From Mageeibacillus indolicus UPII9-5 (lineage in GTDB: Bacteria > Bacillota > Clostridia > Saccharofermentanales > Fastidiosipilaceae), in contig NC_013895.2 of the NCBI RefSeq assembly GCF_000025225.2, positions 1,550,001-1,614,000 on the forward strand: a DNA stretch of 64,000 nt, given 5' to 3'. Made by a program: the position numbers and the translations under genes. Positions 4,479 through 61,423 of the stretch are shown here, piece by piece. The stretch's first letter is position 1. Each line of letters begins with the position of its first letter. Below the pieces are notes generated by a model that searched no databases, was not told the origin of the DNA, and worked only from the letters and a program-made list of their open reading frames with translations.

Positions 4479-7400
4479 TCAATCTTTTGTCGGTGCCTGC
4501 TTCTTTTGGCGGCGGACAACTACGCCTACCAGGATCAGGCCGGCCAAAGTCAGGAACACCGGCAAGATGGGCTGTGTCGTCGCTTCACCCGTCTTGGGCA
4601 CGTCGGCCTGCGGCGTCACTTCACCTTGCGTTGAACTAAGCTTGGCCGTTTTCTTTGTCACTTCAGCCTGTTGGGAAGTGTCAGTACTGCCAGGCTGCTG
4701 TAGGATCACCGGTGGGAACAAGGTGCCATGATTTTGGCTCGGTTCTTCGCCCGGCTGCTGCGGAGTCGTTTTTTCCTTATCTTTTGTCGTTATGGTGTTG
4801 CCATCTTTTTTGACATACTTGCCGTCTTTATTTTTCACCAAAATTTCACCGTTAGTGTCTACTTTGAAAGTAACGCTTTCAGTTACTTCTTGCCTGCCAT
4901 CCTTTTCGACAACCTTCACCAAGGTGTATGTTCCCGGTTTCAGATCAACGTTTTTGTCTTCTTTTCCCGGTTTCCAGCTTTCGCCTACGGTTGTGTTACC
5001 GTTTGGGTCTTCTCCTTCAACTATTTTTAGCGTTGTGTGCTCGCCCTTAGGGTCGTCTTCGCTGGTTTCTGCGTCTTTCGGGAAGGTTACCTTGTGTTTT
5101 CCGCCCGGCTGCTGCGGAGTCGTTTTTTCCTTATCTTTTGTCGTTATGGTTTTGTCATCTTTTTTGACAAAATCGCCATCTTTATTTTTTACCGAAATTT
5201 CACCGTTATTGTCTACTTTGAAAGTAACAGTTTCAGTTACATCTTTCCCGCCATCCTTTTTGACAACCTTCACCAAGGTGTATGTTCCCGGTTTCAGATC
5301 GGTAATTTTGTCTTCGGTTCCCGGGTTCCATGGATTTCCTACGGTTGTTTGGCCGTTCGGATCTTCACCTTCAACTATTTTCAACGTTGTGTTCTTACCA
5401 TCTGGGTCATCTTCGCTGGTTTCTGCGCCTTTCGGGAAGGTAACCTTGTATTTTTTCCCCGGCTGCTGCGGATTTTCTCCGCCAGGCTGTTGCGGGTTTT
5501 CTCCACCCGGCTGCTTGGGCTTATCAAACATCACAACTTCAGCTTTATCCGCGGTAACAAATTTACCGTCCGCGCTCTTTATTGAAACTTTGCCGTTAGC
5601 ATCCACTTTAAAAGTAATACTTTCAGCCACTTCGTAACCATTTGGCGCAGTCGTTTCTACCATCGTATAAACACCCGGTGCCAACCGTATTTTCTTACTG
5701 GAATTACTGGGAGTACCGGAAGTCCATTTTTCAACTAATTGCCCATTCTCGCTATATCCTTTGAGGACTTTTAGCTTAGCACCCGGCAGTTCGGCCGTAC
5801 CGTTCACCGCCTTCTTTGATAGATTGACAAAGAAAGTGTTTTCCGGCTGCTTGGGCTTATCTATCATCGTTACAGTAGAGTCCCCCTGATTAACAAAATT
5901 GCCGTTTTCCCCGCGTACCGAAACTTTGCCCTTAGCATCCACTTTAAAAGTAATACTTTCAGCCACTTCATAACCATTTGGCGCAGTCGTTTCTACCATC
6001 ATGTACTCGCCTTCCGGCAATTTAATCGTCTTAGCACCCTTGTCCTTGTCAGACGTCCATTCCGCAACTAATTTGCTGTATGGCTTTTGACCTTGTTTAG
6101 ATACAATTTGCACTACTTGCAGCTTAGCCCCAGGCAGTTCATCCGTACCATTAACCGCCTTTTTCGACAGCGTAACGTCAGTTAATTTTGATCCAGTTGT
6201 TGTATCTTTTTCATCCGCCATGGTTATCGTTTTGTCAATGCTTGCCACGTATAGGCCTTTGGGATCAGTTCCTGAAACGGTGACTTTACCCTGATCATCA
6301 ACTTTGAAATAAATATTTGCGGCTTTTTTATACCCCAAAGGAGGTTCTTGCTCGGAAAGTTTATAGTCACCGACGGGAAGTTCAACTTCATCCACTTTGC
6401 CTGTCGTTTGCCAGTCCGCATCCGGATACTTACTTGGAACATCCTGTTTATATATTTTTTCTATCATTAAATTCGCCCCAACAAGCAATTTATCGGGTTG
6501 ATCTTTATCTACCTTTTTTACCTTAACCTTAATTTTAGGCGGATCTTTTTTTTCATTGGAAACTTCAAATACCCCATCCAAGACTTTTGTTATGACCGGC
6601 TCGTCATAGCCGTCTTTTTTCCATGGGTTACCAGTTGCATCAGTTTCCTTGACCGTATACTGCTTAATATCAGCCGAATTGTCTATTGGGAATTCTACAC
6701 TAACTGCATTTTTTTCCAACTTTTTAGGGTCTGCAACTTTCGTGCCATTTTTATACAAAGTGAAATAGACATCATCCGGCACAGCGGTTGATTCGCCCAT
6801 ATTGAACCAGAATTTCCTCACCTTGACTACTTTAGGATTCGGTTGCTTCGTATTCGTTATAGTGCAATGTCTGCCGTCAAATCTTACCAGATTATCAGAA
6901 GTATATCCGGGCACTTCCCAGTGCTTCCATCCACCTTTGCCGTCCGGCATCACCTCTTCAACTTCCCAAATTCCCGAGTCAAGATTAAACTCGCCTTCAA
7001 ACACCGCCTGATCCGCTTCGCTGTCTATTTTTTGGACTGCTTCCTTTTGCTTACCGGTGCCTGGATCAGTGACCATGACCGGTTTTCTATCGTTCAAAAG
7101 TCTGACATACGTATCCGGTTTTTTGTCCGTTGAATCTAGATTTATCCAAACCTTATTGACAGTAATGTCATTTTTCTTAAACCTGACCGTTCCCAAGGCT
7201 TGATAGCCTGCGCCTCTCTTGAATTCCGGCTTATAGAAACGATACTCAAGTTTGTCGTAAGGAACGGCAAAATTCCACAAATCCTGCCGCACAAGCTCCA
7301 GTGCTTTTTTCTGTTCATTAGAAAGATACTTATATTCAAAGTAATTTTGCGTCGGCGAAACAAGAAAACCGTCTGTATAACGCCAAATTTCAAGTTGAAT

Positions 7401-7955
7401 TACCTGGTGAAAGGCATCACGAGCAGTACCAATTTCTTTACCCCAAACACGTTTAACAATTCCAGTTGGATCAGCCAAATAGATGTAAGTTAGGCGTGAA
7501 AATGTATCCCAGGCCAACTTTTTGTTGGCAATATGAGAAAACTTATGATTCTCAGCTAAAAGTTTATTATACATATCTTCATCAATATTCCGAACCATGC
7601 TGTATATTCCCTCAGCTTTACCCTCTTCTTTATACGTAGGAAATTTTTTCCCGTTAGCCAGGCAAAAGGCGTAGGAATCTGCATCAAGATTTTTCCCATC
7701 GGCAGTAACTGTTGCAAAACGATTATAATTTGGTTTATTTTCCCTTAAAGTTTTTTCGATGTATCCACTTGAATAATATCGATCATTTAAAGAAATTGAT
7801 GTTACATCATTAGGAAACCCATTAAAATTATCTTCAGCCCTGACTGCACTCGGTAAAAGCACCACTCCACCCAAGATCACAGCTACTGTAACAACCGCGC
7901 TGAGCAACGCTCTACCACTTGCTAAAAACTTTTTAAAATGGCCTCGATTTCTCAT
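4479..7955 (-). CDS. LPXTG-type surface adhesin with thioester domain and CnaB/SpaA repeats
   Basis: Wall-anchored protein of 1158 residues. Residues 1-40 are a signal peptide (cleavage after AVRA). Residues 41-215 look like a thioester domain: Cys98 in YAFCLANG and Gln187 in VIQLEIW match the C and the (T)Q-x-x-I-W motifs whose side chains form an internal thioester in TIE adhesins. Two CnaB-like modules follow (about 255-467, with VNKVWINL and VKVRKFWF openings). Three SpaA-like modules come next, with K in LSKKAVNGT and E in VETTAPNGYE, the pattern of Lys-Asn isopeptide domains. A PQQPGGEN linker and two nearly identical 118-residue repeats (about 832-1068) lead to the sorting signal VPKTG at 1119-1123, a hydrophobic span and an RRQKK tail. 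The start has a GGAGG site. A 250-base leader with an attenuator precedes it. No sortase gene is in the window. Confidence 0.9.
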   Translation of the reverse strand: MRNRGHFKKFLASGRALLSAVVTVAVILGGVVLLPSAVRAEDNFNGFPNDVTSISLNDRYYSSGYIEKTLRENKPNYNRFATVTADGKNLDADSYAFCLANGKKFPTYKEEGKAEGIYSMVRNIDEDMYNKLLAENHKFSHIANKKLAWDTFSRLTYIYLADPTGIVKRVWGKEIGTARDAFHQVIQLEIWRYTDGFLVSPTQNYFEYKYLSNEQKKALELVRQDLWNFAVPYDKLEYRFYKPEFKRGAGYQALGTVRFKKNDITVNKVWINLDSTDKKPDTYVRLLNDRKPVMVTDPGTGKQKEAVQKIDSEADQAVFEGEFNLDSGIWEVEEVMPDGKGGWKHWEVPGYTSDNLVRFDGRHCTITNTKQPNPKVVKVRKFWFNMGESTAVPDDVYFTLYKNGTKVADPKKLEKNAVSVEFPIDNSADIKQYTVKETDATGNPWKKDGYDEPVITKVLDGVFEVSNEKKDPPKIKVKVKKVDKDQPDKLLVGANLMIEKIYKQDVPSKYPDADWQTTGKVDEVELPVGDYKLSEQEPPLGYKKAANIYFKVDDQGKVTVSGTDPKGLYVASIDKTITMADEKDTTTGSKLTDVTLSKKAVNGTDELPGAKLQVVQIVSKQGQKPYSKLVAEWTSDKDKGAKTIKLPEGEYMMVETTAPNGYEVAESITFKVDAKGKVSVRGENGNFVNQGDSTVTMIDKPKQPENTFFVNLSKKAVNGTAELPGAKLKVLKGYSENGQLVEKWTSGTPSNSSKKIRLAPGVYTMVETTAPNGYEVAESITFKVDANGKVSIKSADGKFVTADKAEVVMFDKPKQPGGENPQQPGGENPQQPGKKYKVTFPKGAETSEDDPDGKNTTLKIVEGEDPNGQTTVGNPWNPGTEDKITDLKPGTYTLVKVVKKDGGKDVTETVTFKVDNNGEISVKNKDGDFVKKDDKTITTKDKEKTTPQQPGGKHKVTFPKDAETSEDDPKGEHTTLKIVEGEDPNGNTTVGESWKPGKEDKNVDLKPGTYTLVKVVEKDGRQEVTESVTFKVDTNGEILVKNKDGKYVKKDGNTITTKDKEKTTPQQPGEEPSQNHGTLFPPVILQQPGSTDTSQQAEVTKKTAKLSSTQGEVTPQADVPKTGEATTQPILPVFLTLAGLILVGVVVRRQKKQAPTKD
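4751..5458 (-). repeat. Two tandem 354-bp in-frame repeats in the adhesin gene
   Basis: Unit boundaries at 4751, 5105 and 5459 each begin at the same CCGGCTGCTGCGG segment (coding PQQPG), giving a period of 354 bases or 118 codons. The two units are highly similar through most of their length. This is a site where copy number could change by recombination. Confidence 0.85.
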
Positions 7956-8086: not shown

Positions 8087-8134
8087 AAAAAAGCAAAAGT
8101 GTCCGAACCGCAACGCGATCTCGTATACTTTTGC
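8087..8134 (-). terminator. Leader terminator (putative attenuator) upstream of the 4479-7955 adhesin
   Basis: On the minus strand GCAAAAGT and ACTTTTGC (8127-8134 and 8093-8100) pair around a loop that can form further short stems (CGA/TCG, CGC/GCG), and six T residues follow at 8092-8087. It lies about 130 bases upstream of the start codon and downstream of the predicted promoter, so it would stop transcription before the gene. A similar element stands before the 59139-60974 gene. Confidence 0.55.
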
Positions 8135-8164
8135 TGATAAACTATAGGCAGCCGAAACTTACAG

Positions 8165-8213
<49 letters not shown>

Positions 8214-8216
8214 AAA

Positions 8217-8246
8217 ATCATGCCTGAAAAAGTCATATGCTGTCAA
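8217..8246 (-). promoter_or_regulatory. Predicted promoter of the thioester adhesin gene
   Basis: Minus-strand TTGACA (8246-8241), an 18-base spacer, then CATGAT (8222-8217). The start point would fall at the beginning of the ACAG repeat, giving a leader of about 255 bases. The -35 is perfect and the -10 is weak. The context GGTTGACA followed by a CATGA-like stretch recurs at 61131-61136. Confidence 0.5.
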
Positions 8247-8373
8247 CCTCTTCAAAAGAATTTCATTGACTTGATTTTAACATTTTTCTGCGGAAATAAA
8301 AGAGTTTTTTGTATATATTTTATTTAGTTAAACTTACATTTATCTTACAATTAAATTACAATTCATCCTAGTA

Positions 8374-57457: not shown

Positions 57458-57508
57458 AGATCTACCTCTTTTGCAGCCCTTGTTCAGGTTTTCAGCCTAG
57501 CATCGTGC

Positions 57509-57571
57509 TTTGCATACTTTGCATGCTTTGCATACTTTGCATGCTTTGCATACTTTGCATGCTTTGCATAC
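57509..57571. repeat. Seven 9-bp tandem repeats (alternating TTTGCATAC / TTTGCATGC)
   Basis: Seven 9-base units alternate the two words, giving an 18-bp higher-order period. They lie between the 57597-58043 gene and the TetR gene. Each unit includes a TGCA palindrome. Confidence 0.85.
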
Positions 57572-57596
57572 TTTGTACCAGCCCACCTCAATTGGT

Positions 57597-58810: not shown

Positions 58811-59004
58811 TGGCGAGTCCAAAAGCCATGAAAAGAGATCACCGTCGTTCTATTTCTGCCCGGACATAAAATGTGTTTCTGCCCGAGCCTCCTCTTAAGA
58901 GCTACTTTCTCTGCAAAAAGCTGTTTCATACGGGTGCTTGTGGTAACAATTCCTTCAATTTTATTTAATGCCTCTGTACTCCATATCTTTGCGGTTTCAA
59001 TCAA
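58804..59004 (-). CDS. Short hypothetical protein or gene remnant
   Basis: A 66-codon frame (MIETAKIWSTEALNKIEGIV start) with Arg/Lys-rich middle. Its last codons lie in the 47-bp repeat. No family was recognised; it may be a remnant of a mobile element or chance. Confidence 0.3.
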   Translation of the reverse strand: MIETAKIWSTEALNKIEGIVTTSTRMKQLFAEKVALKRRLGQKHILCPGRNRTTVISFHGFWTRQN

Positions 59005-59103
59005 ACGATCTCATGATAACTCCTTCGTCCAGTTAATTTATTTTCGTCCAATTATACTTGTTTTTGGGCGTAAATCAATTTGTTGGACAAAAAAGGTTGC
59101 ATA

Positions 59104-59123
59104 TAAAAAGGTGGCTCTCACCT
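59104..59123 (-). terminator. Short terminator after the truncated surface protein gene
   Basis: AGGTG and CACCT pair around a 5-base loop and are followed by TTTTTATAT on the minus strand, 16 bases past the stop codon. Confidence 0.55.
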
Positions 59124-59138
59124 CTCTTAGGCAATTCA

Positions 59139-60974
59139 TCATTCGCTTGCAGAGGTATTTGGCACATCATCCTTTTGCCTTGGCACTTGCTCGGGCTGTG
59201 GCTTTAGCTCTGGTATTGGCGGATTGGGAGTTGGATCTGGTGTCGGGTCAGGCGTCGGTTCAGGATTCTTCGTGTAAATAGCATATACAGTCATATCACC
59301 ATTAACAGTAGTTTTCCCATCAAACGCAGTACCTTTACCATCTGCCTTCGTATTCCATTCTTTGAATGTATAACCAGCCTTCGTTGGCTTCTTCGGCATA
59401 GACTCATCAGTCAACGCATCAGTATCAATAGCCTTACCAGTTTCTACCTTTACCGTTGCATGCGTCTTATCGCCATCCTTGAAAGTAACCGTGCTTTGAG
59501 CAGGCTTCTTAACAATAAAGCTATAAGAAATCAAGTTTGGCTGTTTAACCTTACCCTTGTCATCTTTTTCTAAGGCTTCATCAATACCATCACTAGACTG
59601 TTTAGCGGCAAACACAACAGGAAAGACCACATAAGAATGGTGGGCCTCATTATTTTCGGTTGTTACTTGATCTTTATGACGATATTGATCTTTGAAAGGA
59701 TAAGGATCTTGGTTCTTTAACGCTTCATCACTTGTGGAATAGAAATATTCATAAACACCCGAAGCTCGCCCGATCACCTGACTTGGTTTGTTAACTTCAA
59801 CATCTTTACCAATCTCTAATTGTTTAACAGATAAGGTAATTTTTCCTAATTGTTGTATCTTCTTAAAACGATCTTTCAGCTTTTCAAATTTATTCTTGTC
59901 ATTTGTAGGGTTAACATCCTTCATACGAATGCCTACCGTAATTTCATTACTTTGCTCATCATATTTTTTAACATTGACTTCAAAATCATCAGGAGCGCCA
60001 CTGATTGTATAACTGGTATCTTTCGTCGGTTTTAAGCCCTTAGGTAATTTCATGCGATACACAAAATTGCCATCAGCTTGCGTCAATCCATTCTCCGGCG
60101 TGTTATTCACCATCGTATAATAGGCAGGAAATTCTGAACCAATAATTCCTAAAAGTATGGAATTCTGTATGCGACGAACTAAATCAGTATCAACGGTAAA
60201 TTCTAAATCAAGCTTATCACCAATATGGTGTTCAACCATGGTTGAAGATTTTTGATCTTTTTCTTTAATATCAGCGCGAATATCATAGTTGCCCTCAAGC
60301 TTAGACTCTTTACCCGCAATCAGGTCATCATTTATTTTCTTCAACTCATCTGAATACAATAAATCTTTTTTTGCATCAAAGTTATAGGGATTCCATACTT
60401 TGCCATCTTTCCAATAGTCATATGGTGGATTTTCCTTATGTTTTATAGCTGGATAATGATCAAGTGCATAGGCTTCATAAGATAGCATCACAATCTTAAA
60501 TGGTCTCATAAAGGTAAGTGAACCACTGCCCTCAATAATCTTCTTTGTTTCTTCGGTATCATCAAAAATACCCATCGTTGGAAAATCTAAACAATAGCCC
60601 GATTCATTCAGCTTGTCTGTCCAATCCAATTTATTCTTTTGAAAATAAGGAATTAAATCTTTTGGAATAAAGCCCCCAAAGCCATTATTTTTATTCTCAT
60701 ACCAAACAAGATCTGACCAATAATTTTGTTTAACAGTCTTTTCGGCTAAAGTCTTATATTCATTTTGTTTAGCCAATACTTTGTTAGTATATTCATCAAA
60801 TGTAGGGACTTTGCCTGTTTTATAATCTTCTTCTTTAAAATAGTCATACCTTCGTTGAGCTATTGAAGCATTGTTATTGATTTCAGCAAACACTTGGGTA
60901 GTCCCTGCCATTACAGCGAATGTGACGAATATGCCCATTAATAAGCTCATCGCCTTTTTTAATAAAGCTTTCAT
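59139..60974 (-). CDS. Surface/secreted protein with InlB-type repeat and cut-short sorting signal
   Basis: A 611-residue protein. The ATG at 60974 (AAAGGAGG site) is preferred to 61031, which lies inside the leader terminator. Residues 1-31 form a signal peptide (FAVMAGTTQVFA-EI). A large unrecognised ectodomain (about 32-490) follows, then an InlB B-repeat-like module (about 500-580, GYTFKEWNTKADG to DMTVYAIYT), and a PTPDPTPD Pro-rich spacer. The end reads DDVPNTSASE, then TGA TGA: a VPNT motif like the VPNTG of the 28050 gene, but with no membrane span or basic tail. So the anchor has been lost and the protein is probably secreted, or the original gene was truncated. The gene is clearly AT-richer than the operons around it. 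Confidence 0.82.
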   Translation of the reverse strand: MKALLKKAMSLLMGIFVTFAVMAGTTQVFAEINNNASIAQRRYDYFKEEDYKTGKVPTFDEYTNKVLAKQNEYKTLAEKTVKQNYWSDLVWYENKNNGFGGFIPKDLIPYFQKNKLDWTDKLNESGYCLDFPTMGIFDDTEETKKIIEGSGSLTFMRPFKIVMLSYEAYALDHYPAIKHKENPPYDYWKDGKVWNPYNFDAKKDLLYSDELKKINDDLIAGKESKLEGNYDIRADIKEKDQKSSTMVEHHIGDKLDLEFTVDTDLVRRIQNSILLGIIGSEFPAYYTMVNNTPENGLTQADGNFVYRMKLPKGLKPTKDTSYTISGAPDDFEVNVKKYDEQSNEITVGIRMKDVNPTNDKNKFEKLKDRFKKIQQLGKITLSVKQLEIGKDVEVNKPSQVIGRASGVYEYFYSTSDEALKNQDPYPFKDQYRHKDQVTTENNEAHHSYVVFPVVFAAKQSSDGIDEALEKDDKGKVKQPNLISYSFIVKKPAQSTVTFKDGDKTHATVKVETGKAIDTDALTDESMPKKPTKAGYTFKEWNTKADGKGTAFDGKTTVNGDMTVYAIYTKNPEPTPDPTPDPTPNPPIPELKPQPEQVPRQKDDVPNTSASE

Positions 60975-61009
60975 CTTCTTTGCCTCCTTTTTCTGTAAAA
61001 AATGCCCAT

Positions 61010-61060
61010 AAAAAATCGACAAAATACGCACCTAACAATTAGGTACATACTTTTGTCGAT
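61010..61060 (-). terminator. Leader terminator (putative attenuator) upstream of the 59139-60974 gene
   Basis: ATCGACAAAA and TTTTGTCGAT (61015-61024 and 61051-61060) pair, with an inner ACCTAA/TTAGGT stem, and six T follow on the minus strand. Predicted start is near 61101, so it lies inside the 127-base leader, and its T-run ends 36 bases before the ATG. Like the 8087-8134 element it contains CAAAAGTAT in the stem. Confidence 0.6.
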
Positions 61061-61100
61061 CATAAAATCTGTATCACCAATAGACAGAGCTAGTCTGTCT

Positions 61101-61136
61101 GTCTGGGATTTTGTCTGTCTTTTCATGGCTTGTCAA
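61101..61136 (-). promoter_or_regulatory. Predicted promoter of the 59139-60974 gene with GACA repeats
   Basis: Minus-strand TTGACA (61136-61131), 17-base spacer, CAAAAT (61113-61108). AGACAGAC words at about 61091-61120 resemble the ACAG microsatellite of the 8165-8213 leader. Downstream AGACAG can pair with CTGTCT (about 61082-61100). Confidence 0.4.
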
Positions 61137-61423
61137 CCTTATACGCTAATCTTCTTGAGCTAATTATACAAAATAAATTCTATATAGAATAGTTTTTCAT
61201 ATTACGTTAATTTTACAGTTGTATAAAAAATAAAATTGGTACATTCATCGCAAAACCTGCAATAGTTAGATTCGGACAGCCTTGATAAAAACACGGTCTT
61301 TTAGGTTTTCTTGGCCAGACTTATCCGCCCTTTCCGAGTAAGATAAATTAACGTAAAATGAGTGAAAAATAGTCTATCTATGAATATCCATCCGCTTGGC
61401 AATATAAATTTAAGGAGGTTGGC

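What the first reader, a model, noticed from the sequence alone, without database searches (positions are those of the whole stretch)
61010..61136. Second surface-protein gene has a matching leader design
Upstream of the 59139-60974 gene the same order recurs: GGTTGACA-type -35, AGACAGAC repeats, then a T-tailed hairpin with CAAAAGTAT in the stem. The two genes and their ectodomains are otherwise unrelated. This suggests a shared regulatory cassette that moves between adhesin genes. An AGACAG/CTGTCT pairing in this leader could compete with the terminator.
Basis: partly seen in the sequence, partly recalled or inferred. Interest (0 to 1): 0.75.

Follow-up and report, generated by a model that had tools for sequence, protein, structure and literature searches.

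The report
Repeat-counting leader before surface genes
The stretch is a short leader gene with GACA repeats and a transcription stop hairpin in front of a surface-protein gene, one copy of a widespread device that probably lets gut and vaginal Clostridia switch surface proteins on and off by gaining or losing repeats; this particular copy has shrunk and looks stuck 'on'.

Summary
The shared leader is real, but it is best read as a translated leader gene, not as promoter, repeats and a competing hairpin. At 61126 a 51-codon leader ORF starts behind AAGGTTGACA, carries (GACA)2.75, runs through a strong terminator (61061-61009) and ends overlapping the surface gene's ATG. All precede surface-protein genes. 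One further relative genome and at least 117 stretches, mostly from other Clostridia, carry the same order. In 67 non-redundant examples a terminator follows in 46 (shuffled: 7). One reading frame stops at once after the array in 38 of these 46 (shuffled: 17) while another usually reaches the hairpin. Near-identical loci differ in repeat number (16/20/14). This matches the proven pil1 switch of Streptococcus gallolyticus: slippage changes the leader's frame, and a ribosome entering the terminator lets transcription through. The finding's own copy has almost no array left and is predicted ON and no longer switchable. Expression is not tested. A conserved -10-like box before the arrays remains unexplained.

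The parts
61163..61168 (-). TATAAT, likely -10 of the leader promoter
   Evidence: invariant in five aligned leaders; in about a quarter to a third of 100 cassettes a -10-like hexamer lies about 27-35 nt upstream of GGTTGACA, several with a full TTGACA 17 nt before it
61131..61140 (-). AAGGTTGACA: Shine-Dalgarno (AAGG) plus spacer of the leader ORF; also a possible second -35 (TTGACA)
   Evidence: sequence; ATG within 10 nt behind it in 88 of 106 cassettes against 11 of 63 ordinary TTGACA promoters
60971..61126 (-). leader ORF, MKRQTKSQTDRLALSIGDTDFMIDKSMYLIVRCVFCRFFMGIFYRKRRQRR*, 51 codons, through the terminator, TGA overlapping the gene's ATG
61093..61103 (-). contracted repeat tract, GACAGACAGAC (2.75 units)
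   Evidence: relatives carry 14-20 units at the same place
61082..61087 (-). CTGTCT, can pair with the repeats in a separate upstream hairpin
61009..61061 (-). intrinsic terminator: 22-bp hairpin and T-run
   Evidence: fold z -5.9; compensatory changes at 4 of 18 pairs among relatives
59139..60974 (-). surface-protein gene: signal peptide, Listeria-Bacteroides repeat (PF09479), no in-frame LPXTG signal left
   Evidence: not in the PF00746 list
8241..8248 (-). GGTTGACA of the second cassette in the window
8159..8236 (-). its leader ORF at the present repeat number, 25 codons, stop about 23 nt before the hairpin (predicted low/OFF); 62-66 codons through the hairpin at -1 or +2 units
8165..8213 (-). 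(GACA)12.25 array, 100% identical units
8087..8135 (-). terminator hairpin and T-run of the second cassette
4479..7955 (-). LPXTG adhesin gene of 1158 aa under the second cassette (pilus-adhesin insertion domain, SpaA domains)

Best explanation
The cassette is a phase-variable attenuator. A promoter upstream makes a leader mRNA. Ribosomes start at the ATG behind AAGG(GG)TTGACA and translate through (GACA)n. Since the unit is 4 nt, each unit gained or lost by slippage shifts the frame. In one frame the ribosome meets a stop directly after the array, well before the terminator hairpin, so the hairpin forms and transcription ends (OFF). In another frame it runs into or past the hairpin, prevents its formation, and RNA polymerase reaches the surface gene (ON). 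The copy at 61010-61136 has contracted to under 3 units and its ORF reads through the terminator into the gene's start codon: predicted constitutively ON, hardly able to slip. Shown: the sequence parts, their recurrence, frame logic, predicted terminators, repeat-number differences between near-identical loci. Inferred: translation of the leader, switching, and its effect on expression.
For: Leader ORFs and frame outcomes. Further copies. In 67 non-redundant cassettes a terminator of -12 kcal/mol or better follows in 46 against 7 shuffled, and of -18 or better in 36 against 0. A stop within 9 nt of the array in some frame in 38 of 46 against 17.0 +/- 3.1 shuffled; early stop plus at least one frame reaching the hairpin in 37 of 46 against 14.4 +/- 3.0. 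Start codon: 88 of 106 against 11 of 63. Signal-peptide-like gene downstream in 27 of 40 against 33 of 119 other ORFs. Near-identical loci with 16/20/14, 22/20/24/16 and 18/14/12 units. Same architecture, proven by genetics, in S. gallolyticus pil1 and pil3, where the short leader ends 39 bp before the hairpin and isolates differ in repeat number (PMC3894217).
Against: No RNA, ribosome or expression data. The comparison set was picked with GGTTGACA, so that word cannot count as conserved from it. A -10-like ATAAT 17-18 nt behind TTGACA is conserved at DNA level and is not explained by the leader model; if it is the main promoter, the leader ATG is not on that transcript. About 20 of 67 loci show no terminator with my scan, and in some (acyltransferase genes) the array lies inside the gene. 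Loci are related, so the counts are not independent.
Confidence: 0.78

Rival explanations
1. The promoter is TTGACA-N17/18-ATAAT and transcription starts in the array; repeat number acts on the untranslated 5' end (length, array/CTGTC hairpin) or on promoter strength, not on a reading frame.
For: ATAAT at fixed distance behind TTGACA and directly before the array, even before arrays inside two hsdS genes (L195, L200); a post-array CTGTC...TTTTT element that can pair with the repeats.
Against: Conserved start codon at variable distance with an open frame; one frame with an immediate stop far more often than in shuffles, which has no meaning if untranslated; good separate upstream promoters in many copies.
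Confidence: 0.15
2. A trp-like attenuator: AGACAG/CTGTCT forms an antiterminator that competes with the terminator.
For: The two words are complementary and fold into a hairpin; CTGTC after the array recurs in many copies.
Against: The hairpin and the terminator do not share bases and coexist in the minimum-energy fold; CTGTC is absent from several copies.
Confidence: 0.03
3. Chance resemblance of two AT-rich leaders.
For: Short words such as CAAAAGTAT are expected by chance.
Against: About 110 nt align at 84-86% with other loci; over a hundred further copies in Clostridia; zero matches to the reversed control pattern in 393 genomes.
Confidence: 0.01
4. The cassette at 61010-61136 is only a dead remnant: array contracted, gene's anchor lost, no present role.
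For: 2.75 units against 14-20 in relatives; the sorting signal is out of frame as LPKRGES.
Against: Promoter, RBS, ORF and the terminator stem are intact, and the leader ORF is open through to the gene's ATG; the gene's 611 codons are open.
Confidence: 0.25

Closest known systems
pil1/pil3 leader of Streptococcus gallolyticus (Danne et al. 2014, PMC3894217)
   Same: leader ORF with RBS, out-of-frame simple repeat inside it, stop far before the terminator in one frame and inside or behind it in others, surface-adhesin operon downstream, repeat number varies between isolates
   Different: unit GACA (4 nt) instead of GCAGA (5 nt); leader and terminator sequences not compared directly with the Streptococcus ones; class Clostridia; a shared word AAGGTTGACA...ATAAT before the array; many single surface-protein genes rather than pilus operons; in one copy here the leader is fused up to the gene's ATG
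Classical leader-peptide attenuation (trp operon)
   Same: ribosome position decides whether a terminator forms
   Different: no codon-specific stalling proposed and no overlapping antiterminator found; the switch is a heritable frame change
Intragenic repeat phase variation (Haemophilus tetranucleotide genes; Bifidobacterium breve pilus G-tract, PMC9187656)
   Same: slippage in a simple repeat shifts a frame
   Different: there the repeat is in the structural gene; here mostly in a separate leader (the hsdS and acyltransferase arrays noted here are of the intragenic kind)

Membership tests
S. gallolyticus-type phase-variable leader attenuator (cassette family as a whole) | leader ORF with start codon and RBS in front of the gene | tested here: met
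S. gallolyticus-type phase-variable leader attenuator (cassette family as a whole) | tandem repeat in the leader whose unit is not a multiple of 3 | tested here: met
   GACA arrays
S. gallolyticus-type phase-variable leader attenuator (cassette family as a whole) | intrinsic terminator between leader array and gene | tested here: met
   46 of 67 against 7 of 67 shuffled
S. gallolyticus-type phase-variable leader attenuator (cassette family as a whole) | short leader stops clear of the hairpin, long leader reaches it | tested here: met
   37 of 46 against 14.4 shuffled
S. gallolyticus-type phase-variable leader attenuator (cassette family as a whole) | repeat number differs between otherwise near-identical loci | tested here: met
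   strains of the window's own species could not be compared
S. gallolyticus-type phase-variable leader attenuator (cassette family as a whole) | translation-dependent transcription read-through and bistable expression | not testable with these tools
   needs reporter or RNA work
S. gallolyticus-type phase-variable leader attenuator (the copy at 61010-61136) | array long enough to slip frequently | tested here: not met
   2.75 units; hence filed as a contracted relative, not as a working switch
trp-type attenuator with competing antiterminator | mutually exclusive hairpins | tested here: not met
any Rfam riboswitch or leader family | match at gathering score | tested here: not met
   window: none; 14 cassette loci: only a tRNA elsewhere in L089

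The most novel reading that the evidence does not exclude
The GACA cassette is a mobile regulatory module spread over several orders of Clostridia that carries two overlapping signals in about 40 nt: a translation start for the frame-counting leader and a second promoter whose transcripts begin inside the array and so escape or set the baseline of the switch. It is passed between lineages together with adhesin genes by serine-recombinase elements.
Probability: 0.2. Interest if true: 0.75.

Novelty: new variant of a known kind. Interest (0 to 1): 0.62.

Why it matters
Leader-length phase variation with transcription attenuation has been reported, in the papers I could search, only for two pilus operons of one Streptococcus species. 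Finding the same logic with another repeat unit before surface genes of many gut and vaginal Clostridia would make it a general way for commensal Gram-positives to vary their surface. It also gives a sequence signature with which ON and OFF states could be read directly from long-read metagenomes.

Tried and rejected
CAAAAGTAT as a shared element: rejected, not clearly above chance in the window and not kept in relatives. GGTTGACA counted alone: 73 places in the genome, uninformative. Competing hairpins: rejected. Rfam: nothing relevant. Pairing of the SD region with the CCCTTTT element behind the array: weak signal (-7.5 against -7.0 +/- 0.24 for swapped pairs, 5 of 200 as good), kept as unexplained. 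A degenerate leader pattern in viral contigs found nothing because the pattern held one base too many. Relatives of the window gene on plasmids: none. My first terminator scan was too narrow and was replaced. Literature searches found no report of GACA leaders in Clostridia; the library lacks most subscription papers.

Full report
Identity of the window. The genome is one contig of 1,809,746 bases with the window at 1550001-1614000 and has no other genome in its genus here. The size agrees with Mageeibacillus indolicus UPII9-5 (BVAB3): 1810 kb in PMC3533761, 1.81 Mb, CP001850 in PMC11318147. The name is an inference from size and family, not from a sequence match.

What is at 61010-61136. Reading the minus strand: TATAAT (61168-61163), AAGGTTGACA (61140-61131), ATG (61126), CAGACAGACAGAC, CTGTCT, a 22-bp hairpin and T-run (61061-61009), an AGGAGG, and the surface gene's ATG at 60974. 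From the ATG at 61126 an ORF of 51 codons runs through the repeats and both arms of the hairpin and ends as TGA overlapping the gene's ATG. The hairpin is far more stable than shuffles. The AGACAG/CTGTCT hairpin lies upstream of it and does not compete.

The same design elsewhere in this genome. Genome searches gave a third copy at 814213 with (GACA)14.25 before an LPXTG gene, and alignment gave a fourth, contracted copy near 811070 before another LPXTG gene. Copies 1, 3 and 4 and three loci from viral contigs (L187, L192, L193) align from the TATAAT to the end of the terminator, with compensatory changes at 4 of 18 terminator pairs. The only other long GACA array of the genome (21 units) lies inside an hsdS gene.

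Frame logic. With the repeat number varied by single units, copy 1 gives leaders ending 37, 53 or 156 nt from the ATG (hairpin from about 66), copy 2 gives 78, 95 or 193 (hairpin from about 102), and copy 3 gives 85, 105 or 143. At present copy 1 reads through (ON), copy 2 stops about 23 nt before the hairpin, and copy 3 stops about a dozen nt before it. L187, L192 and L193 are near-identical in flanks but carry 16, 20 and 14 units. They end 5, 25 and 25 nt behind the array, with the hairpin about 37 nt behind it.

Beyond this genome. A second genus of the family has two copies before signal-peptide genes, one OFF-like and one ON-like. In an even sample of 393 genomes of the class the strict pattern occurs in 3 and its reversed control in none, so it is sparse and patchy. 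On 67 complete, non-redundant loci: terminators 46 against 7 in shuffles; an immediate stop in one frame 38 of 46 against 17.0 +/- 3.1; switchable logic 37 of 46 against 14.4 +/- 3.0; signal-peptide-like gene downstream 27 of 40 against 33 of 119. A start codon follows TTGACA within 10 nt in 88 of 106 cassettes and in 11 of 63 ordinary promoters of the same DNA. The loci are related to each other, and the set was selected with GGTTGACA and three GACA units, so these figures are comparisons, not probabilities.

Mobility. In L187 the cassette and a two-gene adhesin module follow an intact serine recombinase directly. In L192, L193 and at copy 3 only the recombinase's 3' end remains, in different neighbourhoods. 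The second protein of L187 is homologous to the window gene at 59139-60974, which has lost its in-frame sorting signal. This supports, but does not prove, movement of leader and adhesins together.

Mechanism. The arrangement equals the pil1 and pil3 leaders of S. gallolyticus, where genetics showed that GCAGA slippage changes leader length and that the ribosome prevents an early terminator (PMC3894217). By analogy the GACA cassettes are phase-variable attenuators. I rate this at about 0.78. The copy of the finding works like one fixed in the ON state. It fails the feature of a slippage-prone array, so I do not call it a working switch.

What does not fit. A -10-like ATAAT lies 17-18 nt behind TTGACA directly before the arrays, in array searches that did not ask for TTGACA too, and even before arrays in two hsdS genes. 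Many copies also have a separate upstream promoter. A T-rich element (ATAAGTCTGTCCTTTTTTG) behind the array is shared and may pair with the SD region. These could mean a second promoter or SD masking and are open.

Noticed in passing
G000:C1:377163-377246 (L049); also L200 in another genome: (GACA)21 array inside a type I restriction specificity gene (hsdS), preceded by the same TTGACA-N17-ATAAT; probably phase-variable specificity.
   Followed up: partly
L078, L090, L106, L153, L161: GACA arrays that run directly into the N-terminus of membrane acyltransferase-like genes: intragenic on/off repeats with the same upstream sequence.
   Followed up: partly
G000:C1 about 811070-811200 (L205:3070-3210): Fourth, contracted leader in this genome with GGTTAACA and about 2.5 repeats before an LPXTG gene; its leader stops at the foot of the hairpin.
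   Followed up: yes
L211:3580-3985: Adhesin gene 96% identical to that of L187, but its leader is replaced by a MITE-like element with ends GGGTTATAGGCCAAAAAGTGTGTAA.
   Followed up: no
window 58990-59139: Sorting signal of the 59139-60974 gene is degenerate and out of frame (LPKRGES).
   Followed up: partly
L187:1745-5078: Two serine recombinases side by side at the end of a prophage-like region, next to an adhesin module; relatives of one are common in gut phages.
   Followed up: partly
window 57506-57575: Perfect 18-bp repeat in 3.9 copies (TGCTTTGCATACTTTGCA) inside a short reading frame.
   Followed up: no
window 4748-5472: 354-bp tandem duplication (86%) inside the 1158-aa adhesin gene.
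   Followed up: no
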